Below, one piece after another: positions 3,595-43,196 of a DNA stretch of 55,227 nucleotides. The notes below the pieces were generated by a model. That model was not told the DNA's origin. It did no database searches and was given only the letters and a program-made list of their open reading frames with translations. The position numbers and the translations under genes are program-made. The stretch comes from a virus. Location: positions 1 to 55,227 of IMG/VR virus record IMGVR_UViG_3300032282_000541. One strand, written 5' to 3'. Position 1 is the stretch's first letter. Each line of letters opens with the position of its first letter.

Positions 3595-4050
3595 TTAGAC
3601 GTAGGCTTTGAAAGAAAGGGGATTGCTTGTGACTTTGGCGATCACTTCGTGGTCGTTGATGGTCATAAACAGTACGGGGTCTTCGCTTGCATCAGTCGCC
3701 GGGTCTTTCATTTCCCAGCGGTCACCGCCCCAACGAGGTACGCGAACAAAGTCACCAACTTCTGCCCATGAGCCCTCAGGCCATGACTGCATGGTGTCTC
3801 GGTTTTTGTACGCCAAAGGCCCAAGTGCCACGACCTTTCCGATCATGTTGTTCCACTTTTCGTTTTCTTTGGTTTCATCGACGATGATGATCATCCCCGC
3901 CTTCTTCTTGATCCGTCGGAGTTGCACGATCATGCGCCCACCCAACGGTTCCATACCCGGATTCACACCCGGGAATGCCCACGCCAACTCTTGCGGGTCG
4001 GGCGTGTCCTGCGTCGCTTCAAAAGTCACGACTTGTTTTCCTTCACTCAT
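3595..4050 (-). CDS. GroES-like co-chaperonin
   Basis: 151 aa, AAGGAG before the ATG. After a 34-residue extension the GroES fold signature can be followed in order. PLGGRMIVQL (35-44) matches the PLxDRVxV start. KKAGMIIIVDETKE (49-62) lies where the mobile loop begins. GKVVALG (71-77), VGDFVRVPRWGG (98-109) and VLFMTINDHEVIAKV (126-140) match the remaining strands. Phage co-chaperonins such as T4 gp31 cap host GroEL to fold the large capsid protein. Placement between portal and capsid genes fits that role. The N-terminal extension and the Trp-rich segment around residue 90 are unlike host GroES. The fold call rests on motif order, so remote-homology confirmation would be worthwhile. Confidence 0.75.
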   Translation of the reverse strand: MSEGKQVVTFEATQDTPDPQELAWAFPGVNPGMEPLGGRMIVQLRRIKKKAGMIIIVDETKENEKWNNMIGKVVALGPLAYKNRDTMQSWPEGSWAEVGDFVRVPRWGGDRWEMKDPATDASEDPVLFMTINDHEVIAKVTSNPLSFKAYV

Positions 4051-22412: not shown

Positions 22413-22640
22413 TTCTGAAATGGTGATTGTTGAATCTACTCTGTTGATATGCATAGTTCCTGTGGTCACAAAATTCCAGTCGTGATCGTTGGGGTCTGCC
22501 TCAGTGTGTGAGTGGGCCAACAGCCAAACCCTCTTGCAAATCCATTCTTTGCCAGTCTCATCGAACACACGCCACTTGTGATCGATGGTGCCCCTGCCGG
22601 GTTGCCCGGCAGACTTGTTGTATCTGATCCTGAATTTCAT
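22407..22640 (-). CDS. Small beta-rich hypothetical protein
   Basis: 77 aa from the ATG at 22640 with GGAGGT just upstream, overlapping the oxygenase stop. Strands are apparent (MKFRIRYNKSAGQ; HKWRVFDETGKEWICKRVWL; TGTMHINRVDSTITISEI). It may work with the 2OG oxygenase that is translated first. No family is recognised. Confidence 0.6.
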   Translation of the reverse strand: MKFRIRYNKSAGQPGRGTIDHKWRVFDETGKEWICKRVWLLAHSHTEADPNDHDWNFVTTGTMHINRVDSTITISEI

Positions 22641-23272
22641 ATCACCTCCACGTCGGGCTCTTGTGGCTCTGGTGCTACTGCCACCGATAGGTTCATGTGA
22701 ACGAACCTCATGGGCTCTTGGCTCATGTTTTTGGTGAAAGAGTGGGGTAGCCATGCATTTGCAAATATCAGGGTTCCTGCATCCGGCGTGAACACGACTT
22801 GATGTGATCCCATGGTGATCTTGTTGGCATCCTTCTCAGGCAGGTTGATGATCACCTTGGCGTGCCTCGGATCGTGCAATACCAGCTTGCATGAGTTCTT
22901 GGGTGCGTCGATGAAATAGAACGCACTGATCTGCACTCCATGGCCGTGGATATGGGTTTCCATTGAAGACATGTGGCTGTGTTCTTGCGTCCACATCTCA
23001 GTGAAGAACGTCACCAAACTATCCATGTTGTAGCCCTGCGACTCAAGAATGTTCCATGCGGTCTGCGACACGTACCGGGAAAACTCTTCCAACTCTGGTT
23101 CATGTGCATAGGTTCCGGTCATAAGGGTGGCACCTTTTGAACCTTCACGATTGGCTTCTTCATACCTCGAAGACACTGTGCGAACTGCCTCCAAAAACTC
23201 AGGTTTTTTCACCACATAAATCGGGCTGGCAAAGTAGTGCGCTTCTTCAAGTTTGTCCATTCGTTTCTCCAA
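22637..23272 (-). CDS. Putative 2-oxoglutarate/Fe(II) oxygenase
   Basis: 211 aa, GGAGAA upstream, led by operator site 5. The double-stranded beta-helix signature can be followed. HIHGHGVQISAFYFIDAP (His107/109/111) supplies the first metal ligands. LIFANAWLPHSFTKN has the distal His177, and EPMRFVHMNLSV supplies an Arg189 for 2OG. Phage members of this class are thought to hydroxylate protein or nucleic-acid targets. The usual HxD is replaced by HxH, as in a subset of phage enzymes, so activity is likely but not certain. A small beta protein is coupled downstream. Confidence 0.7.
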   Translation of the reverse strand: MEKRMDKLEEAHYFASPIYVVKKPEFLEAVRTVSSRYEEANREGSKGATLMTGTYAHEPELEEFSRYVSQTAWNILESQGYNMDSLVTFFTEMWTQEHSHMSSMETHIHGHGVQISAFYFIDAPKNSCKLVLHDPRHAKVIINLPEKDANKITMGSHQVVFTPDAGTLIFANAWLPHSFTKNMSQEPMRFVHMNLSVAVAPEPQEPDVEVI

Positions 23273-23780: not shown

Positions 23781-23855
23781 TGGTAGCGGGGGCTGGATTC
23801 GCACCAGCGATCTACGGGTTATGAGCCTGTCGAGTTACTACTTCTCCACCCCGCA
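23781..23855 (-). tRNA. tRNA with CAT anticodon, initiator (fMet)-like
   Basis: 75 bases including an encoded CCA end. The cloverleaf reads closely like bacterial initiator tRNA. Acceptor bases 2-7 are GCGGGG, paired with CCCCGC. Position 1 (T) cannot pair with position 72 (T), the mark of initiators. The D stem has A11:T24, another initiator trait. The loop is CTCATAA (anticodon at 23821-23823). Only two of the three G:C pairs typical of the anticodon stem remain (an A opposite C replaces the third), and the D loop lacks the usual GG. The T loop reads TGCGAAT. The gene overlaps the end of a Cys-rich frame upstream. Confidence 0.85.
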
Positions 23856-28494: not shown

Positions 28495-28674
28495 ATGTCT
28501 AATTTTTTTGATTGGCTAAATGATTACGTCCCTTTGGTAATTGTGATCATTATTTGGCTGATTATTCTTCCCGTTCGGCTATCGATATTGATGCTGTTGC
28601 CTTCATCGGCTTGGCGTGGTTCGCACTTCTTCAACCCTGTGTATGAGTTTTTTGCATTCGAGGAGAGATTATGA
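28495..28674 (+). CDS. Small membrane protein
   Basis: 59 aa, GGAGG 5 bases before the ATG. A membrane segment (YVPLVIVIIIWLIILPVRLS, about 11-30) extends toward a second hydrophobic part. The tail is FFNPVYEFFAFEERL. Its stop overlaps the lipoprotein ATG (ATGA), suggesting the two are envelope partners. Function unknown. Confidence 0.65.
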   Translation: MSNFFDWLNDYVPLVIVIIIWLIILPVRLSILMLLPSSAWRGSHFFNPVYEFFAFEERL

Positions 28675-28958
28675 AATTGATTGCACTATTCCTTGTTGTT
28701 TTGGTCGGTTGCTCGTCTACCCCGCCTGCTCCCTCCAAGCCAGCGCCTGTTGTCATTCATGAGCAAACGTATCCCAATCAGAAATTGGTTGTGGATTCAG
28801 AGGTGTCTGAGATGAGTCGTCAAGACATCATCAGCGCCATTCATGAGTGCCAAGAAAACGACTTGCGACCTATCCCGGTTAAATCAAAGAAAAGAGTTGA
28901 AGGACGCATCACCGATGCCATCATCAACGTGATCTGCGGCCCTCAGAAAGCAAAATAA
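28671..28958 (+). CDS. Small lipoprotein
   Basis: 95 aa, GAGGAG upstream. The start MKLIALFLVVLVGCSSTPPA is a lipoprotein signal with lipobox LVGC (Cys14), then a Pro/Ser linker. The mature domain has a pair of Cys (HECQENDLRP and VICGPQ). It would be anchored in the host envelope. Superinfection exclusion or spanin-like roles are possible, but it is far from the lysis genes, so exclusion is more attractive. No family is recognised. Confidence 0.7.
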   Translation: MKLIALFLVVLVGCSSTPPAPSKPAPVVIHEQTYPNQKLVVDSEVSEMSRQDIISAIHECQENDLRPIPVKSKKRVEGRITDAIINVICGPQKAK

Positions 28959-28967
28959 GGAGAACAA

Positions 28968-29246
28968 ATGAGCACCATATCAACATCAAAACTCAGCGAA
29001 ATAGTTGGCTTGCATATTCCAATTGTTTTTTTGAAAGACCTTGGTCTCAAGCCTGCTTATGAAACAAAAAGCGGTGCCATGTGGAATGAGAGCGACGTGG
29101 ACTCCATCTTTTTGGAGTTGGGGCTTCATTTCCTAAACAAGTCCAAATTAAATTTGGAAGCTCCGTATGGATACAAAAAGAACGGCGAACCATCAAAAAA
29201 ACGTGGCAGGCCATCAACCCCTATATTTCAAAAGGAACACGCATGA
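28968..29246 (+). CDS. DNA-binding protein with AT-hook
   Basis: 92 aa, AAGGAG upstream. The first half looks helical, like a winged or HTH segment (SKLSEIVGLHIPIVFLKDLG). The C-terminus holds KKRGRPSTP, an AT-hook that grips the minor groove of AT-rich DNA. It is coupled to the exonuclease gene. It may regulate transcription or load the recombination proteins. Confidence 0.6.
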   Translation: MSTISTSKLSEIVGLHIPIVFLKDLGLKPAYETKSGAMWNESDVDSIFLELGLHFLNKSKLNLEAPYGYKKNGEPSKKRGRPSTPIFQKEHA

Positions 29247-30031
29247 GCACCATCATTGCCCGGTCGGCTGAATCAGTCCACTGGTACAAACAAGACGGAG
29301 GCCCACAGTACACCGTGAAGGCCAAAGACGGCTCAGACCGCCCCACGACCCTCAGGGACGCACGCAAGATGGACTTGGTGCCTTCGGTCACCACCGTCAT
29401 GAAAGTTGCCGCAAAGCCCGGCTTGGAGCAGTGGAAGCTGGAGCAAATGCTTTTGGCCTCCATGACCCTCACCCAGTTGCCCGGCGAAACAGAGCAAGCC
29501 TTCATTGCACGAATCGTTGCCGACTCTAAGGAGACGGGGAAGCAGGCCGCAGAAAAGGGCACGCGCATCCACGAGTCCATCGAATCATGGTTTGAAGGCA
29601 AGAAGGACGTTGTCCACAAGGACATCGCCATGGCGTTTGAAGAGTCCATCTTCACCCACTTTGGCACCCACCCGTTCCAGCCATGGCTGACAGAGCGGTC
29701 GTTCTCCAGCCCTCGGGGGTTTGGCGGCAAGGTGGACTTGTACTGTGAGCCTGATCAGCATGCACCCATGGGGATCGTGTTGGATGCCAAGTCAAAGGAC
29801 TTTGGCCCCGACGACAAGGTTGATGCCTATGACGAGCACCTGATGCAGTTGGCGGCATACCGCTATGGCCTCGGTGTGCCTTATGCACGCTGTGCAAACG
29901 TGTTTGTGTCTCGTAGTCACCCCGGCCTTGTGAAGGTCGTGGAATGGCCTGAGGCCGAACTGGTGAAGGGCTGGGAAATGTTCCAAGCATTGCTTCGCTT
30001 TTGGAAACTGAAAAATAACTTTGGAGTTTGA
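29243..30031 (+). CDS. PD-(D/E)XK exonuclease (RecB/Cas4-like)
   Basis: 262 aa. The nuclease core is easy to follow: GTRIHESIE (His110), PWLTERSF (Glu151), GGKVDLYCEP (Asp165), GIVLDAKSK (Asp181, Lys183) and a YDEHLMQLAAYRYG helix (Gln202). It should degrade one strand of duplex DNA for recombination or trim ends. With the SSB-like protein it could form a simple recombination pair; no annealing protein is obvious. The ATG overlaps the AT-hook gene stop. The length is normal for phage exonucleases of this group. Confidence 0.85.
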   Translation: MSTIIARSAESVHWYKQDGGPQYTVKAKDGSDRPTTLRDARKMDLVPSVTTVMKVAAKPGLEQWKLEQMLLASMTLTQLPGETEQAFIARIVADSKETGKQAAEKGTRIHESIESWFEGKKDVVHKDIAMAFEESIFTHFGTHPFQPWLTERSFSSPRGFGGKVDLYCEPDQHAPMGIVLDAKSKDFGPDDKVDAYDEHLMQLAAYRYGLGVPYARCANVFVSRSHPGLVKVVEWPEAELVKGWEMFQALLRFWKLKNNFGV

Positions 30032-34700: not shown

Positions 34701-36647
34701 TTAACCTTTCGCTCCATTGATGTAGTCAAGTGGAGATTTTGCCTTTGGGGGAATTTTACTTGTGGGTGCTGATCTTTTGTGTGCCCTGAGTTTCTCACGA
34801 AGGCCGTCCAAAATCTTTGCACCCGCCTTGTTGTCACCGCCACCCAGAGCGGTCACAAATCCTTCTGGGAACACATACTCGCCATCTGCAATCTTTGCAG
34901 GTACAGGCTTGCCGCCACCAGTCTCTTTGTGAGGTACTTGGCTACGGAAGCTCTCAAGGACATCTTTACCAGCCTTGCTGGAGCCGTCGCCCAGTGCCGC
35001 CACCACGTCAGCGTCCATCACGTAGTCGCCATCGTGAAGCATGGCCGGAATTTCGTCTGATTGACCTGTACCGCCACCGCAAGCATAGAAACCAGTCAAC
35101 CCGGTTACAAACTCTGTGTTGTGACCTTCAGGTGCGGCCTCTCTGTACTTACTCGGCAGACCACCTTTAGCCAAGCCACCCATATTGCCCATAGGTGAAA
35201 TGTGTTGACTCATGTGTGAAAGCGGCTTCAAGCCCATTGCGGCACGACGCTGGGATGCAGTCGATGTCAATAGGTTTGCGGCGCAATCAGCAAATTTAGG
35301 CATGTACTTAGGATCATTGTTCAGGCAGAAACAAGTTGTTGTTCCACCTGAAGCAAATCCACTTGGGCTTGCAAAGTTTCCAGAGATTTGACTTCCAGTT
35401 TCATCAATATCCAGAGGCTTCAAAACGTCAGCAGAGTAATTTTTGCCGTACAGGGCCGCTTCTCTTTTTTTCTTTTCTAGCTCTTCTTCTGTCAAAGTAG
35501 TTTTGGTCAAGGCGTTTGGATCAAGCTTGTTCACCAGCATTTCTGCATCTGTGTTCAACCATGGGCTCATCACACTTGACAGGGATGAGTAGTCACCAGC
35601 GCCGCTTGATCCTTTTGATCCCGTTGACTTGCCTGTGCCTTTTTTCAGGAATGCGCTGGCATTGATGTTGGGCACATCGATGTTGTAGGCGCAAGAAGGC
35701 GTTGGAATGACCGCTTCACCAGTCACGTTGGGATTGTTGATGAATGATCCGGGATCACCCAGTGCAGGCTTGGCACTTTGATCAATGAACCCTGCGCCAC
35801 TGACAGTGCCCAAGGCACCTGTAGAGTAATCAGGATTGTTGATGAATGAATTGGGGTCGCCCAAAGGAGCGGAAGCATCAATTGAAAGCCCGGAAGCACC
35901 ACCCATGTTGCTCATTCCCGGCGCTTGCCCCATGATGCTATCCATGGTCAAGGTGTTGTAAGCACCAGCAGGATTCAATCCTTGCTCACTTGTGGGAATG
36001 TTGCTCTTATCACCAGTCAATGAGTAATCGGTTGGCTTTACATCCCAACTTGATTTGTCAAGAGGTTCATAGTCATCAGTACCCTCTGGAGAGTCATATG
36101 AGATATTTAAATCATCTTCATTCATTGATGGCGTATTCAACTCTGTAGCCGTTGCATCAGTGAGTGCATTAAATCCAGTATTCAGGCCGCTCATCAAAGC
36201 GCCTTGTCTAATATCTCCACCACGTAATCCTGCGGCGGTTGCTCCTGCGGCGGCGCTTCCAAGGGTTGCTGAAAGACCAGCGTTGATACCTTGATCAGTA
36301 AGTGCCGAGGAAAAAGATGAGCCCACGCCAGAGCCAATTTGCTGAGTTACGTATGAAACGCCAGCATTCAGTAGCGCCTTGTCAAGGGATTGACCATGAG
36401 CCACGCCATCGACAACGTTAACCGCAGGCAAGAGGTATGGCGCATAGACGGCGGCGGCAACCTTGGCCGCTGTACCAATTGGGTCTTTTCCTGCCGCTGT
36501 GATTGTGTTGTCTACAACCTGAACAACTGGCTGAAGGATTTCTCTATCTACTGTTTTTAAAACATCATCAGCCGCCTCGAACACATCTCCAACGGCATCT
36601 CCAACACCTTCAAAAACATCTCCAGCAAATTCAACCACTGCTCCCAT
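34701..36647 (-). CDS. Large internal virion/tail protein with repeated DGxYV motif
   Basis: 648 aa, AGGAG upstream. The N-terminus (GAVVEFAGDVFEGVGDAVGD) and an Ala/Gly-rich part are membrane-active in look. The C-terminal 130 residues hold two related units: IPAMLHDGDYVMDADVVAAL...GSSKAG, and PAKIADGEYVFPEGFVTALG...DNKAG. This (L/S)DGEYV-V-ALG-KAG unit is common near the ends of podovirus structural proteins. The centre is low in complexity with several Cys. It likely leaves the capsid with DNA or links tail parts. Upstream gene: 143-aa protein, spaced by one base. Confidence 0.65.
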   Translation of the reverse strand: MGAVVEFAGDVFEGVGDAVGDVFEAADDVLKTVDREILQPVVQVVDNTITAAGKDPIGTAAKVAAAVYAPYLLPAVNVVDGVAHGQSLDKALLNAGVSYVTQQIGSGVGSSFSSALTDQGINAGLSATLGSAAAGATAAGLRGGDIRQGALMSGLNTGFNALTDATATELNTPSMNEDDLNISYDSPEGTDDYEPLDKSSWDVKPTDYSLTGDKSNIPTSEQGLNPAGAYNTLTMDSIMGQAPGMSNMGGASGLSIDASAPLGDPNSFINNPDYSTGALGTVSGAGFIDQSAKPALGDPGSFINNPNVTGEAVIPTPSCAYNIDVPNINASAFLKKGTGKSTGSKGSSGAGDYSSLSSVMSPWLNTDAEMLVNKLDPNALTKTTLTEEELEKKKREAALYGKNYSADVLKPLDIDETGSQISGNFASPSGFASGGTTTCFCLNNDPKYMPKFADCAANLLTSTASQRRAAMGLKPLSHMSQHISPMGNMGGLAKGGLPSKYREAAPEGHNTEFVTGLTGFYACGGGTGQSDEIPAMLHDGDYVMDADVVAALGDGSSKAGKDVLESFRSQVPHKETGGGKPVPAKIADGEYVFPEGFVTALGGGDNKAGAKILDGLREKLRAHKRSAPTSKIPPKAKSPLDYINGAKG

Positions 36648-36648
36648 A

Positions 36649-37080
36649 TTAAGCTCCTAAATTCAAAACAATGCGTGTTTTGCCAGATTGCGATTTATAC
36701 ATTTGGTAACCCATGCCGGGCAACGGTGGACGCATTGCAATAATCTTGAACAACTGAGCCAACTGCGGATCATCAAATTCAGTGACAAGGACTTTCAAGT
36801 TCAAAACACGACGAGCCCAGACAACAAACTGTTTGCTGTTGTCAACAAAATTGGGTGGTATGTCAACGTTGAAGGCTTTGAAAAACCCTTGGCCGTCTTT
36901 GCCAGTATGAACTTCAAACAAAGTGTTTCCAATTTGTTGTACCTTGCAATTTGGTTGGCTCAACTCAGCCAAGATGGCAGGCATCACAACATTGTCAGGC
37001 TGAGGCTGAGGATTGTTCTTCAAGAAAATGCCAAGGATTTGACCTGAATCCAGTTCTTTGTCTTTTGAATCTACATACAT
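36649..37080 (-). CDS. Hypothetical protein after the KAS gene (phage GNAT-like size)
   Basis: 143 aa, GGAG upstream, one base after the KAS stop. The chain mixes helices and strands (ILAELSQPNCKVQQIGNTLF; HTGKDGQGFFKAFNVDIPPN; FVVWARRVLNLKVLVTEFDD; MRPPLPGMGYQMYKSQSGKT). A small fold of acyltransferase type is possible: the strand, then a helix plus MGYQMYKSQSG near the end, recall N-acyltransferases. I see no clear catalytic pattern, so this is a guess from context with the acyl-carrier genes. Confidence 0.45.
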   Translation of the reverse strand: MYVDSKDKELDSGQILGIFLKNNPQPQPDNVVMPAILAELSQPNCKVQQIGNTLFEVHTGKDGQGFFKAFNVDIPPNFVDNSKQFVVWARRVLNLKVLVTEFDDPQLAQLFKIIAMRPPLPGMGYQMYKSQSGKTRIVLNLGA

Positions 37081-37081
37081 G

Positions 37082-38197
37082 TCATAACTCCGTTGTCATT
37101 ACTGCCGCTGAATACACGTTGCCCATGCCAGCCGCCAACGACAGAATGGCACCCTTGGGTGCATCAACGTCATGCGACAAAAACACGTCATCTTCTTGAG
37201 TTCTATTCGGGATGCCGGGCACAAACCCACTGTTCATATTGTCGATCAGTAAGCATGTTTCTAGCAACCCGCTCACGCCCATGGTGTGGCCGATCACCTG
37301 TTTGTAGGATGTCGCCACAAAATCCTTGAATACCGACTCAATGGCGTTTCTCTCTGCCTTGTTGTTTGACTTGGTGCCAGTTCCGTGGGTTTTGATCACC
37401 GCCACGCACTCCGGAGACAGTTTTGCCATATCCAGAGCGCCCTTAGCGGCCCGGATAAAGCCTTCGCCACTCTCAGCCTGCCCAATGGCATTGGCGTGGG
37501 CTTCTGAGGCCGTGTAGGCACCCAAAAGCCGCCCCTTTGGTATGACTGCACGACGTATCACCGTCGCCTCGTCCTCAAACACCGCCAAGCAGGCTCCTTG
37601 GCCTACGTGGAAGCCGCCGTTGACACTGTCAAAGGCTGAGGGCTTGACACCCTCTTTTTCGTCTTTCCACGCCAGCGAGGCTTGGGCTTCGCCAAAGAAG
37701 TTCAGGGTGAGGTTGCTGACCTGATCCTCGACGGCCAGCACCACCACCCGGTTGAAGCCATAGAACCGCATCAGGGTCTGCACATCCATGAGCACCTTCA
37801 TGCTGGAAGCGCAGGCGCTGGAATCGGTCACGATGTGGTCGGATGCGCCAAAAGCTTGGGCTGTACGGCCTGCATAGACCTGAGTCAACGTCAGTGGCAA
37901 GAACTTGTACTCGTAGATCAGCGAGTTGGGCTCAGACTTGATCGGGTTGATCCCGGCAAAGTGAGCATTGCCGGAAGCAAGAATGAACGCCGTTTTGGCT
38001 TCTTTGTCTTCCCTGATCGACGTTGCCAAGTCTTTGTCCAACACCTTGTCGGCCACCCGGTGGGGCACATAGAACAGGCCAGTCTTGATCCTGTCGTAGG
38101 TTTCTGGGAACCAATTGACGACCTGAGGATATTTGATGTCCTCAAGCAGTTTGGTCTCGGTGGTGGATGCCAGTCGGTAGTCGCTGAGATAAATCAT
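37082..38197 (-). CDS. Beta-ketoacyl-ACP synthase (KAS, FabF/FabB-like)
   Basis: 371 aa, thiolase fold. The catalytic parts are intact and correctly spaced. The nucleophile is Cys129 in TDSSACASSMKV. His271 sits in VIKTHGTGTKSNNKAE. Lys299 and His304 sit in KQVIGHTMGVSG, five residues apart as in FabF (Lys335, His340). The C-terminal loop LAAGMGNVYSAA replaces the usual GFGGTN, so the Phe gate residue is Met. Cells use these enzymes to elongate ACP-bound acyl chains. The start codon overlaps the ACP stop (ATGA). The chain is some 40 residues shorter than FabF. A sub-family making a special acyl or polyketide product cannot be excluded. Confidence 0.85.
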   Translation of the reverse strand: MIYLSDYRLASTTETKLLEDIKYPQVVNWFPETYDRIKTGLFYVPHRVADKVLDKDLATSIREDKEAKTAFILASGNAHFAGINPIKSEPNSLIYEYKFLPLTLTQVYAGRTAQAFGASDHIVTDSSACASSMKVLMDVQTLMRFYGFNRVVVLAVEDQVSNLTLNFFGEAQASLAWKDEKEGVKPSAFDSVNGGFHVGQGACLAVFEDEATVIRRAVIPKGRLLGAYTASEAHANAIGQAESGEGFIRAAKGALDMAKLSPECVAVIKTHGTGTKSNNKAERNAIESVFKDFVATSYKQVIGHTMGVSGLLETCLLIDNMNSGFVPGIPNRTQEDDVFLSHDVDAPKGAILSLAAGMGNVYSAAVMTTEL

Positions 38198-38475
38198 TTG
38201 ATCATCTCCATGGCGGCTTCGATGGACTCACACTCGCGCTTTTTGTTGACTTGGATGAAGTCAAACAGTTCTTGCGGAGTGGTTGGGTGGTAGTCAGTTG
38301 CGACAGCGTCGTCAATGTCGTAGATGATTGCAAAGTACATCACAATCATCAGGCCATCTAAAGAGTCGATCTCCGTCTCTGTGAATGGCTCCTCCATGCT
38401 TTGCAATGGAGTCAGGTCTTGGTGAGACGGTTTGGTAAACCTCGCCACCTTGTTGAGTAAGTCAAGAAAATTCAT
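38194..38475 (-). CDS. Acyl carrier protein
   Basis: 93 aa, GGGGG upstream. The DSLD box at residues 37-40 puts Ser38 in place for a phosphopantetheine arm. The following helix (GLMIVMYFAIIYDIDDAVAT) and a late TPQELFDFIQ match ACP helices II and IV. A 30-residue N-terminal extension (KVARFTKPSHQDLTPLQSME) is unusual, as is the basic C-terminal helix. It would need host AcpS-type transferase to be loaded. It is tied by ATGA to the KAS gene, which should act on it. The helix after Ser is more hydrophobic than in host ACP, perhaps to suit one partner. Confidence 0.75.
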   Translation of the reverse strand: MNFLDLLNKVARFTKPSHQDLTPLQSMEEPFTETEIDSLDGLMIVMYFAIIYDIDDAVATDYHPTTPQELFDFIQVNKKRECESIEAAMEMIK

Positions 38476-38708
38476 TGTGCCCCCACATTCATAATGCCTG
38501 TCATTTGTTCAGCCCACTCGTACCAGAACTCATATCCACGGTGATCAGGAACACCTGATTGGACAAAGTACCCAATACCATTTAGGCCATCAACCCACTG
38601 TCGCCAGTTTTCTTCTTCTACGTACCCCAACTGGTTAGGGGCAAACAACTCGGCCATCAATTTGCAGTATTGATCCCAAGTCATCCCTCTCGGATCGTAG
38701 GCAATCAT
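38472..38708 (-). CDS. Small aromatic protein upstream of the ACP gene
   Basis: 78 aa, overlapping the ACP gene (ATGA) and the nozzle gene (TAATG). It is rich in Trp/Tyr (WDQYCKLMAELFAPNQLGYV; GYEFWYEWAEQMTG), with no known motif. It may belong to the ACP-KAS unit, or may be a small tail protein placed there by order alone. Confidence 0.5.
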   Translation of the reverse strand: MIAYDPRGMTWDQYCKLMAELFAPNQLGYVEEENWRQWVDGLNGIGYFVQSGVPDHRGYEFWYEWAEQMTGIMNVGAQ

Positions 38709-40981
38709 TATGGATTACCTGTTCCGCGCACATCGCCTGTATCCAAACTCAACAATGTTCGACCCATGAAGTAATCGCCATTTTGTGTGTTGCTTCGGAA
38801 CTTTAAGCGCATCTCGCGTCTTTGCTCTTTCATGTCAATTTTAAGCGTAGTGTTTGCAAAGACGTATGGCTCGGAAGGATCGTCAACGTCGTCAGCGTAG
38901 GATTTACCCGTTACCACCACTTCCATGTCGCCTACCTGAACAAAGTCAGGTTCAATCCGCTCGCATCGTGTCCACACGTTATCACCGGGTTGCTCTACAG
39001 CACCCACAAGACCCGCACGAGCGCCAATCACATTGGTCTCAAAGAACGAGTCAATTGCGTTCACACGGTTGGTATAAACCTCATTTGTGCCAGTTTCGTG
39101 TTGCCACAAGGTGTACTGTCCCGCCGTGTTCTCGACGTTACCAGCCCAAATAGGCCGACGGAACACTTCAGAAAACACACCAGCAGAGCGATAAGCGCCC
39201 AAAGCTTGACCTGCGTCATACCAAACCTTCTCTCTCACGTTGTAAATAATTGCATCATTGCATTCTTCACTGTCGCCGGACGGAAAGAACCACCAAATCT
39301 CACCCCAGCGCGGCACCTTGCTAACCCATACCTTTTGGCGCTGTCTGTAGTTCAAGTTGTCAAAAAAGTAGTTGAAGTTCTGCTTGTTGTCCAACTCCTG
39401 AACCACACCGTTGTAGGTCAAGAATCGGTCTGTTCCGCACCAGTAAAAAATGCCGTCATATTCAATAACGCACTGGCTGGACAGGATTGATGACTGTTGG
39501 GTGATCAGGTCGTACTTCCAATAAAAGGTCTGGTTGCCCACAGTGGTCGGTGCATAGGTCACCCGTACCACTGAGTCCAATGTCCAAAATAGGCCAGCAG
39601 GAGACGTTGTGCCGCCCCTCAGAGGCAGTCCCTTGACCACTTTGGTGGATGACACGTTGTTCTTGTTGGAGTCGGCTGAAGTCCAGTTGCTGAAATCTCC
39701 TGCCGCGCTGTTGGCAATGTAGCCGTAGTTGCCATAGGCAAACAGGTATGGGAACAGCATCACGATGCCACCAGACACTTCAATGTTGTTGTCAAAGGTC
39801 AATGTTGCATAAGCACCAAAAGTCAGGCCAGTGGTTGTGCCTGCGGTTGTGGTGATTGCGGTGCCGCCAAACGTCGCCGACAAGGTGAATGTGCTCGTTG
39901 TGTTGGTGGTAATTACGTAATACGTACCAGCGGCAATGCCTGTGGCGGTGCCTGTTAACGTGCCTGTAACGACAACCGTTTGACCAACTGCAATGTTGGT
40001 GGTTGCTGTACAAGAGAATTGACCAGCAGTGCCAGTAACAGCAACAGAGGCCAATACTGCACTTGGTGTAGACGCAGTGGCATTCCTGCTCAATGTTGCC
40101 GTCCAAACGCCAGTAACTTCTAAGGCAGACAAAACAGTGGTGCCTGTGGGGATGCCCGTACCAGTCACGGATACGCCAGCGCCGATAGCCGCAATTGTTG
40201 TTGGGAAAGTGACAGTAGGCGATCCACTTGTGGTGGTGCCCGTTGCTGTGAACACCCCCACAGGATTTAATGTTGACCCTGCAAATGGGCCAAACATAGG
40301 TCGAGAGTTTATTGAGGACGAAATGTCATTGAGGTTTTGACCGGGGTGAGCGATCAAATTGTTGTCGCCATTTCCCAGTGCGTCATATCCAATGTCAAAC
40401 TGCCACAGTGTGTTATCGCTTGGAGCGTAGGTAGTCAAATCGTTAACGTAGGAGGCAAACCCAGAGCCAGCGCCGCCAATACTTGCATTGTTGATGGTGA
40501 TAGCCCCATTGTGGACGTAATCAATACCAGCCGTGGTTACAACCACACTGAAAACCAAATTACCTGCAACTACCACGGTAGCAAGAGCCCCTGTACCCGA
40601 TGTAGCAACTAAAGGAACACTGGTGTACGTTCCATTGACATAACCTGTGCCTTGATTGGTGATTGTGATTGTTTCCAAAGGGCCAGTCGGCTCAATTGGT
40701 ACTGGGCCAAAGCCCACACCATTGTCGTTATCGGTCGTCCACTGTTCTATGCCGTTGTTGTATCCAGATATTACATAGTTGAGGCCGTCCTCGGCACTCA
40801 TAATCATTCCGCGACTGATACCTGTTGCATCCAAAAAAGCCCCAATGTAGCCACCTATCTTGCGTGGTCGGCTGTATTGGAATCTCACCCATTTTCCGTC
40901 CACATAACTCACAGAGGCAAACTGCGTGCTATCTCTTTGGATGCCCGGGCCAACTTGTAACGTGACGACTTTTGCGGTCAT
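38708..40981 (-). CDS. Tail nozzle-like/stabilisation protein
   Basis: 757 aa, TAATG coupled. The N-terminal part (VSYVDGKWVRFQYSRPRKIG) and the region about 450-650 (CVIEYDGIFYWCGTDRFLTY; KVWVSKVPRWGEIWWFFPSG; VWYDAGQALGAYRSAGVFSE) are like the beta-propeller tail proteins of podoviruses, such as P22 gp10-type nozzle proteins. An insert of repeated Thr/Gly/Val strands (about 265-400) resembles Ig-like domains that bind host surfaces. It should close the tail tube after packaging. Family naming is by overall look. Confidence 0.65.
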   Translation of the reverse strand: MTAKVVTLQVGPGIQRDSTQFASVSYVDGKWVRFQYSRPRKIGGYIGAFLDATGISRGMIMSAEDGLNYVISGYNNGIEQWTTDNDNGVGFGPVPIEPTGPLETITITNQGTGYVNGTYTSVPLVATSGTGALATVVVAGNLVFSVVVTTAGIDYVHNGAITINNASIGGAGSGFASYVNDLTTYAPSDNTLWQFDIGYDALGNGDNNLIAHPGQNLNDISSSINSRPMFGPFAGSTLNPVGVFTATGTTTSGSPTVTFPTTIAAIGAGVSVTGTGIPTGTTVLSALEVTGVWTATLSRNATASTPSAVLASVAVTGTAGQFSCTATTNIAVGQTVVVTGTLTGTATGIAAGTYYVITTNTTSTFTLSATFGGTAITTTAGTTTGLTFGAYATLTFDNNIEVSGGIVMLFPYLFAYGNYGYIANSAAGDFSNWTSADSNKNNVSSTKVVKGLPLRGGTTSPAGLFWTLDSVVRVTYAPTTVGNQTFYWKYDLITQQSSILSSQCVIEYDGIFYWCGTDRFLTYNGVVQELDNKQNFNYFFDNLNYRQRQKVWVSKVPRWGEIWWFFPSGDSEECNDAIIYNVREKVWYDAGQALGAYRSAGVFSEVFRRPIWAGNVENTAGQYTLWQHETGTNEVYTNRVNAIDSFFETNVIGARAGLVGAVEQPGDNVWTRCERIEPDFVQVGDMEVVVTGKSYADDVDDPSEPYVFANTTLKIDMKEQRREMRLKFRSNTQNGDYFMGRTLLSLDTGDVRGTGNP

Positions 40982-42854: not shown

Positions 42855-43196
42855 TTATCCAACATTGCGCTCAAAGTGAGGGCAGTCAACAAGTGATTTG
42901 AAGTTGCCTCCCCAGCGATTCTTGGGGTGCAGTGACTCCCAATATACGCCCAGTGGAGCAAGCATCTCCTTGTCCCAGATTATCTTCCCTGCCTTGAAAA
43001 AGTTCAAATCAATGGCGCACCGCTTCAGGTGGATTGAGTTGAGGGTCTTGGAACGGCCTGTTTTGACGTATATGGCCTGTTGTTCGGGTGTCCGGGCCAA
43101 CTCCCCACCAGTGACCATGAAACCCTGTGCGGTGGCGTATTCGATCAGTTTGCAGGCATCTAGCAAGAAAGCCGCTTGTTCTGTGTTCAGGCTCAT
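42855..43196 (-). CDS. Endolysin, M15 peptidase
   Basis: 113 aa, GAGGAA upstream. SIHLKRCAIDLNFF holds His56 and Asp63, and DCPHFER holds His107: the zinc set of L-alanyl-D-glutamate or D,D-peptidases. RWGGNFKSLVDCPHFE is typical of phage M15 enzymes. There is no signal peptide, so it needs a holin. It would cut peptide links in the cell wall at the end of infection. Coupled to the adjacent holin-like genes. Confidence 0.9.
   Translation of the reverse strand: MSLNTEQAAFLLDACKLIEYATAQGFMVTGGELARTPEQQAIYVKTGRSKTLNSIHLKRCAIDLNFFKAGKIIWDKEMLAPLGVYWESLHPKNRWGGNFKSLVDCPHFERNVG

What the first reader, a model, noticed from the sequence alone, without database searches (positions are those of the whole stretch)
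37082..38475. Phage-encoded acyl carrier protein and ketoacyl synthase as a coupled pair
Seen: a 93-aa ACP with DSLD (Ser38) overlaps by ATGA a 371-aa KAS with Cys129, His271, Lys299 and His304 at FabF-like spacing. The pair sits inside the virion gene row, flanked by a 143-aa and a 78-aa protein of unknown role. Known: KAS condenses acyl groups held on ACP. Inferred: the phage makes its own acyl chain or diverts host acyl groups, for membrane change, a lipid on a virion protein or a small molecule. The ACP extension and the Met in place of the gate Phe hint at specialised substrates.
Basis: partly seen in the sequence, partly recalled or inferred. Interest (0 to 1): 0.85.

Follow-up and report, generated by a model that had tools for sequence, protein, structure and literature searches.

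The report
Phage-specific acyl carrier–ketosynthase gene pair
A large group of uncultured aquatic phages carries its own matched pair of a fatty-acid carrier protein and a chain-extending enzyme, always side by side with intact active sites, which suggests that these viruses run a small acyl-making step of their own whose product is still unknown.

Summary
ORF 38194-38475(-) is a divergent acyl carrier protein (ACP). ORF 37082-38197(-) is a short FabF-type ketoacyl synthase (KAS). Their ends overlap by ATGA.

The pair is not a quirk of this contig. In 167 distinct KAS loci an ACP lies directly upstream in all 166 where the upstream side is visible. The ACP Asp-Ser is kept in 146/146 distinct ACPs. 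The KAS Cys, His, Lys, His are kept in every unique sequence that covers them. The phage KAS form one clade far from the bacterial KAS sampled, with a shortened N-terminus and an Ala-Gly-Met-Gly gate loop.

New here: the 143-aa neighbour has a GNAT fold and resembles T7 gp13-type virion-module proteins. The ACP-KAS pair has moved as a unit to DNA-metabolism regions at least twice, and has been lost or decayed elsewhere, while the GNAT gene stays.

Best reading: a catalytically competent pair working in the infected cell with host AcpS, malonyl supply and reductases, changing acyl or lipid output; the product is unknown. Virion-protein acylation stays open.

Phage ACPs, and prophage fabG-acpP-fabF sets, are already known. 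This phage-only pair was not found described in the papers searched.

The parts
38194..38475 (-). phage acyl carrier protein, 93 aa, predicted 4'-phosphopantetheine site Ser38 in D-S-L-D
   Evidence: family profile vs PDB: ACPs best E 2.7e-4; AF2 model pLDDT 89.7 with ACPs as best fold matches; Asp-Ser in 146/146 distinct relatives
37082..38197 (-). phage beta-ketoacyl-ACP synthase (KAS), 371 aa, catalytic Cys129, His271, Lys299, His304; Ala356-Gly-Met358-Gly gate loop; shortened N-terminus
   Evidence: PF02801 2.9e-17, PF00109 4.1e-6; FabF 4.6e-23; profile vs PDB FabF 4e-27; residues kept in all covering sequences
38194..38197 (-). ATGA overlap: stop of the ACP gene and start of the KAS gene (translational coupling inferred)
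   Evidence: 4-base overlap in 80 of 83 relatives
36649..37080 (-). 143-aa GNAT-fold protein, likely counterpart of T7 gp13-type virion-module proteins; neighbour of the pair, probably not an obligate partner
   Evidence: AF2 pLDDT 94.4, GNAT order of helices and strands; PDB fold matches are N-acetyltransferases, best E 9.6e-5; persists where ACP-KAS is absent
38472..38708 (-). 78-aa virion-module protein of unknown role, ends in a 4-base overlap with the ACP start
   Evidence: conserved in relatives
34701..36647 (-). 648-aa protein downstream of the GNAT gene, probable internal/ejection-type virion protein (inferred from position and weak tape-measure matches)
   Evidence: weak PHROG tape-measure matches, best E 0.0038
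38708..40981 (-). 757-aa virion structural protein upstream of the pair
   Evidence: phrog_3287 virion structural protein 5.6e-22; relative annotated 'phage stabilization protein'

Best explanation
The two genes encode a dedicated, catalytically competent ACP-KAS pair of an old phage-specific lineage. Shown: fold and family of both proteins, conservation of the carrier serine and the four catalytic residues, strict linkage, and movement as a unit. Inferred: host AcpS loads Ser38; the KAS takes an acyl group from host acyl-ACP onto Cys129 and condenses it with a malonyl unit held on the phage or host ACP; host FabG/FabZ/FabI process the beta-ketoacyl-ACP. The pair thus adds one rate- or length-controlling step to host acyl metabolism during infection. 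The most likely benefit is a changed fatty-acid or envelope-lipid supply in the infected cell. The pair works in the cytoplasm and is not a virion component.
For: Family and catalytic residues. ACP identity. Carrier serine 146/146. Obligate linkage, 166/166 visible loci, 4-base overlap in 80/83. Strong purifying selection on the KAS: dN 0.09-0.14 with dS 0.95-1.49 against four relatives. In other lineages the pair sits in DNA-metabolism regions with no GNAT neighbour; on the tree this needs at least two moves, so the function does not depend on virion-module position. The record that holds L201 keeps the GNAT gene about 20 kb away without the pair beside it. No phosphopantetheinyl transferase of PF01648 was found in the window, so host enzymes are needed.
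Against: No other fatty-acid enzyme was recognised in the window, so any product is inferred. Most copies (149 of 158 with a visible downstream side) sit next to the GNAT gene in the virion module, which would fit a virion role. The pair can be absent or decay. Gate-loop changes leave substrate and even reaction type (condensation against decarboxylation) open. No structure was predicted for the KAS itself.
Confidence: 0.5

Rival explanations
1. Virion-protein acylation. The ACP-KAS pair makes or holds a particular acyl chain, and the GNAT-fold neighbour passes it to a lysine or N-terminus of an ejection or tail protein, as HlyC does from acyl-ACP, helping that protein enter membranes.
For: The 143-aa neighbour has a GNAT fold; KAS and GNAT genes are adjacent in 149 of 158 loci with a visible downstream side. 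Precedents: HlyC uses acyl-ACP (PMC8339906), and a dedicated ACP serves acylation of a membrane-inserting translocon protein (PMC5279801).
Against: The GNAT gene persists without the pair and the pair persists elsewhere without an adjacent GNAT gene. The GNAT segment before helix 3 lacks the usual R/Q-x-x-G-x-G/A loop (sequence; motif from memory), and GNAT proteins stand beside internal virion proteins in T7-like phages described without such a pair (PMC6775973, passages read). ACP-KAS distance correlation is no stronger than ACP-GNAT (partial r 0.49 both).
Confidence: 0.2
2. Specialised small molecule. The pair makes a beta-ketoacyl or other acyl product used as a signal, an inhibitor of rival phages or host defence, or a precursor of a modification, rather than feeding bulk lipid.
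For: The phage KAS are a distinct clade with an altered gate loop, Ala-Gly-Met-Gly, in essentially all members. The actinorhodin KS is among the PDB profile hits (1tqy, 6.8e-23), though FabF scores better.
Against: No tailoring enzyme is adjacent in any of the contexts inspected; the best matches are ordinary FabF.
Confidence: 0.17
3. Non-catalytic role. The ACP and KAS act as decoys or scaffolds, for example binding host ACP partners or stabilising a complex.
For: ACPs are known structural subunits elsewhere (mitochondrial complex I ACPs are among the profile hits).
Against: The four KAS catalytic residues and the ACP serine are kept without exception, which a scaffold would not need.
Confidence: 0.08
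4. Recent host gene or assembly artefact: an ordinary bacterial acpP-fabF fragment misplaced in a viral contig.
For: Prophage fabG-acpP-fabF sets are reported (PMC8224337).
Against: Syntenic in many independent viral contigs and in a circular phage record; one clade far from the bacterial KAS sampled; the only close genome-collection hit (54%) has phage genes around it.
Confidence: 0.02

Closest known systems
FabF / beta-ketoacyl-ACP synthase II (type II fatty acid synthase)
   Same: Ketoacyl-synt N and C domains; Cys-His-Lys-His set and the Glu after the second His; best PDB matches are FabF
   Different: About 40 residues shorter at the N-terminus, Ala-Gly-Met-Gly for Phe-Gly-Phe-Gly, long branch to the bacterial KAS sampled; no fab operon around it
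AcpP-type acyl carrier protein
   Same: Asp-Ser-Leu/Met site, helical fold, profile matches to ACPs
   Different: Below Pfam detection for most members (5 of 41 match PF00550, best E 0.003); about 15 extra residues; encoded in a phage beside its own KAS
Rhodobacteraceae prophage fabG-acpP-fabF sets (PMC8224337)
   Same: Phage-borne acpP and fabF together
   Different: Three-gene set with fabG, discussed there as fatty-acid synthesis genes like those of bacterial fab operons; not this two-gene cassette
Lone phage ACP genes (Alteromonas phage R22Y, Erythrobacter phage R6L, Vibrio phage R16F)
   Same: Phage-encoded ACP, proposed fatty-acid role
   Different: No KAS partner is described in the passages read
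MW202545.1, uncultured Caudoviricetes from Manatee Spring
   Same: Same gene order; [quoted passage not shown]
   Different: Its ACP is annotated hypothetical, and the Manatee Springs community paper does not mention acyl or fatty-acid genes
T7 gp13-type GNAT proteins in podovirus virion modules
   Same: GNAT-fold protein beside internal virion proteins (PMC6775973), as the 143-aa protein here
   Different: Described there without an ACP-KAS pair
HlyC/RtxC acyltransferases with acyl-ACP; IacP-SipB translocon acylation
   Same: Dedicated or host acyl-ACP used to lipidate a membrane-inserting protein
   Different: No shown acylated target here; the GNAT gene and the pair separate in some phages

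Membership tests
Beta-ketoacyl-ACP synthase (KAS I/II, FabB/FabF) | Ketoacyl-synt N and C domains above the curated cut-off | tested here: met
   PF02801 63.2 bits and PF00109 27 bits, cut-off 20.8 each; the N domain matches only from profile position 112
Beta-ketoacyl-ACP synthase (KAS I/II, FabB/FabF) | Cys-His-His triad plus Lys at aligned positions | tested here: met
   Aligned to FabF; Cys in 110/110, His, Lys, His in 108/108 covering sequences
Beta-ketoacyl-ACP synthase (KAS I/II, FabB/FabF) | Phe-Gly-Phe-Gly gate loop | tested here: not met
   Ala-Gly-Met-Gly in the phage family; bacterial comparison rows also vary at the second Phe. Typical of FabF but not required for KAS membership as such
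Beta-ketoacyl-ACP synthase (KAS I/II, FabB/FabF) | Condensing activity | not testable with these tools
   needs an enzyme assay
Acyl carrier protein | Asp-Ser-Leu phosphopantetheine site | tested here: met
   Asp-Ser in 146/146 distinct sequences, followed by L or M
Acyl carrier protein | Four-helix ACP fold | tested here: met
   Five predicted helices, Ser38 at the start of helix 38-51; best fold matches are ACPs but with weak E-values, TM about 0.5-0.6
Acyl carrier protein | Match to Pfam PP-binding above cut-off | tested here: inconclusive
   No hit for the window protein; 5 of 41 members match PF00550, best E 0.003
Acyl carrier protein | Loaded with phosphopantetheine in vivo | not testable with these tools
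   needs mass spectrometry
GNAT acyltransferase (143-aa neighbour) | GNAT fold | tested here: met
   pLDDT 94.4; listed PDB matches with E below 0.001 are acetyltransferases
GNAT acyltransferase (143-aa neighbour) | R/Q-x-x-G-x-G/A acyl-CoA loop | tested here: not met
   Segment between strand 64-71 and helix 75-91 reads N-V-D-I-P-P-N-F; conserved as N-x-D in relatives (motif from memory)
Rhodobacteraceae prophage fabG-acpP-fabF set | fabG present with acpP and fabF | tested here: inconclusive
   No reductase-like ORF adjacent in the contexts inspected; fabG was not searched with a family model

The most novel reading that the evidence does not exclude
A widespread, phage-only branch of ketoacyl synthases with its own carrier protein makes a dedicated acyl product, possibly not an ordinary fatty acid, that gives these phages an advantage; where it sits beside the GNAT gene, that product may be placed on an ejected virion protein, a lipidated phage injection machine.
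Probability: 0.2. Interest if true: 0.9.

Novelty: new variant of a known kind. Interest (0 to 1): 0.68.

Why it matters
Viral auxiliary metabolic genes are usually thought of as host genes taken up recently. It suggests a function for PHROG families 35856 and 28189 (both 'unknown function'), and makes a direct question testable: what acyl product does a phage need? If the product ends on a virion protein, it would be a lipidated phage injection system.

Tried and rejected
Tested whether the GNAT neighbour is an obligate partner: rejected, since each occurs without the other beside it.

Distance-matrix correlation as a sign of special ACP-KAS coupling: not informative, ACP correlates equally with KAS and GNAT (partial r 0.49 each).

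Host gene or contamination: rejected. Isolated phage with the pair: none in 50,697 phage records; only MW202545.1, uncultured. The other, weaker phage-record hits are 24-28% identical and mostly in unannotated records; they are not counted as the same family.

An apparent ACP 'DAMD' variant was a regex artefact; the real site is DSLD. Single-sequence Pfam and PDB searches with the ACP found nothing useful; only the family profile worked.

PHROG search with the GNAT family gave no hits. No KAS structure was predicted, as both jobs went to the ACP and the GNAT protein.

Host prediction was not achieved.

Full report
OBSERVATION. The window is itself a 55,227-base virus record. The two ORFs are as described: ACP-like 38194-38475(-) and KAS 37082-38197(-), overlapping by ATGA, between a 78-aa gene (itself overlapping the ACP start by four bases) and a 143-aa gene.

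KAS. The 371-aa protein matches both Pfam ketoacyl synthase domains above cut-off and FabF chains in the PDB at 4.6e-23. Cys129, His271, Lys299 and His304 fall on the catalytic positions. A profile of 41 non-redundant relatives reaches FabF at 4e-27. Those four residues and Glu313 are invariant in the 41 and in every covering sequence of 110 unique ones. Two features set the family apart from 23 bacterial KAS: a loss of about 40 residues at the N-terminus, and Ala356-Gly-Met358-Gly in place of the Phe-Gly/Ala-Phe-Gly loop. Met358 is in 108/108 and Ala356 in 106/108. Met or Ile also occurs at the second position in 10 of the 23 bacterial rows, so Met alone is weak evidence of a special substrate. 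The bacterial rows were picked by shared motifs and are not a representative sample of FabF.

ACP. The 93-aa protein has no Pfam match by itself. A 13-sequence profile gave only ACPs below E = 1 in the PDB (21 of 21, best 0.026). A 41-sequence profile gave a chloroplast ACP at 2.7e-4, and 59 of the top 60 chains were ACPs aligned on the DSL site. The predicted structure is confident (mean pLDDT 89.7) with helices 3-14, 38-51, 56-60, 67-77 and 85-92. ACPs are its best fold matches, though with weak E-values (best 0.09, probability 0.98). Asp-Ser is kept in 146 of 146 distinct ACPs, as DSLD 130, DSMD 15 and DSLG 1.

LINKAGE. Among 167 distinct fetched KAS loci, an ACP is directly upstream in 166; the other is cut by a contig end. 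The ACP-KAS overlap is four bases in 80 of 83 loci. The KAS is under strong purifying selection (dN 0.09-0.14, dS 0.95-1.49 against four relatives; synonymous sites of the ACP and of more distant pairs are near saturation).

CONTEXTS. In the common arrangement the order is virion protein, small protein, ACP, KAS, 143-aa protein, 648-aa protein. The 143-aa protein has a very confident GNAT fold (pLDDT 94.4). Its listed PDB matches below E = 0.001 are acetyltransferases, and a DUF2824 phage protein is among the viral matches. A GNAT protein next to internal virion proteins is known from T7-like phages as gp13 or its counterpart (PMC6775973). This neighbour is therefore probably a virion-module gene in its own right. 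Its segment before helix 3 lacks the usual acyl-CoA loop (sequence; motif from memory).

THE PAIR IS A UNIT SEPARATE FROM THE VIRION MODULE. (a) In L146 the small protein runs straight into the GNAT gene with no ACP or KAS. (b) In L163 a decayed KAS C-terminal scrap remains just before an intact GNAT gene. (c) In L191-L201 the pair lies between a helicase and other DNA-metabolism-region genes. In the record holding L201, the virion module about 20 kb away keeps the GNAT gene without the pair. (d) In L268 the pair follows a different gene in the DNA-metabolism region. On the KAS tree the 'elsewhere' copies need at least two changes, forced by well-supported branches, so the pair has changed place at least twice. 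The direction, from virion module outward, is inferred from nesting. Names of the DNA-metabolism genes in (c) and (d) rest on reading the sequences, not on a family search.

ORIGIN. Phage KAS form one clade with full support on a long branch from the bacterial KAS sampled. The nearest GTDB-genome hit (54%) lies in a contig with the same phage gene order, so it is probably a phage contig. In 50,697 phage records only the uncultured MW202545.1 holds the pair; its KAS is already named there.

MECHANISM. Shown: families, catalytic and carrier residues, linkage, mobility as a unit. Inferred: host AcpS charges Ser38 (no PF01648 protein in the window), the KAS condenses host-derived acyl and malonyl units, and host reductases finish the cycle. 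Because the pair is kept in DNA-metabolism regions as well as in the virion module, I favour an effect on acyl or lipid metabolism in the infected cell (0.5). Virion-protein acylation through the GNAT neighbour has good precedents in HlyC (PMC8339906) and IacP-SipB (PMC5279801), but the neighbour and the pair separate in some phages, so I give it 0.2. A specialised small molecule gets 0.17 and a non-catalytic role 0.08.

KNOWN OR NEW. Phage ACPs and prophage fabG-acpP-fabF sets are published. I found no description of this two-gene, phage-only cassette, but the held library lacks most subscription journals, and the search was limited to ten queries. I rate it a new variant of a known kind, with an unknown product that can be tested.

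Noticed in passing
L163 5901-5990: Decayed KAS C-terminal scrap (reads like S-Y-K-A-K-I-G-F-T-M-G-S-S-G-L-L) before an intact GNAT gene, with the catalytic His of the GH motif read as Phe: a scar of pair loss.
   Followed up: yes
window 36649-37080: The neighbour 'of unknown role' has a confident GNAT fold without the usual acyl-CoA loop; relatives keep invariant G-N-T and N-x-D motifs of unknown role.
   Followed up: partly
window 3595-4050: GroES-like protein (PF00166 E 3.7e-4, just under cut-off) near the capsid genes; the relative in MW202545.1 is annotated 'chaperonin 10 kd subunit'.
   Followed up: no
window 22637-23260: Putative 2OG-Fe(II) oxygenase (PF13759, 3.4e-11).
   Followed up: no
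window 23781-23855: Single tRNA-Met gene.
   Followed up: no
window 28671-28958: Small lipoprotein-like ORF (VVLVGCSSTP signal, by eye) resembling ORFs in L198 and L268; may be a conserved lipoprotein of this phage group.
   Followed up: no
window 42855-43196: M15-type peptidase (PF13539, 7.8e-8), likely endolysin, next to small membrane proteins.
   Followed up: no
L095 (JAGYJQ010000016.1): A contig binned as a Balneolaceae MAG carries the phage gene order ACP-KAS-GNAT; it is probably a phage or prophage contig and may hint at a host.
   Followed up: partly
L268: ACP-KAS pair after a gene similar to window 29243-30031, downstream of a DNA methyltransferase-like ORF, on a contig with virion-type genes in the opposite direction.
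   Followed up: partly
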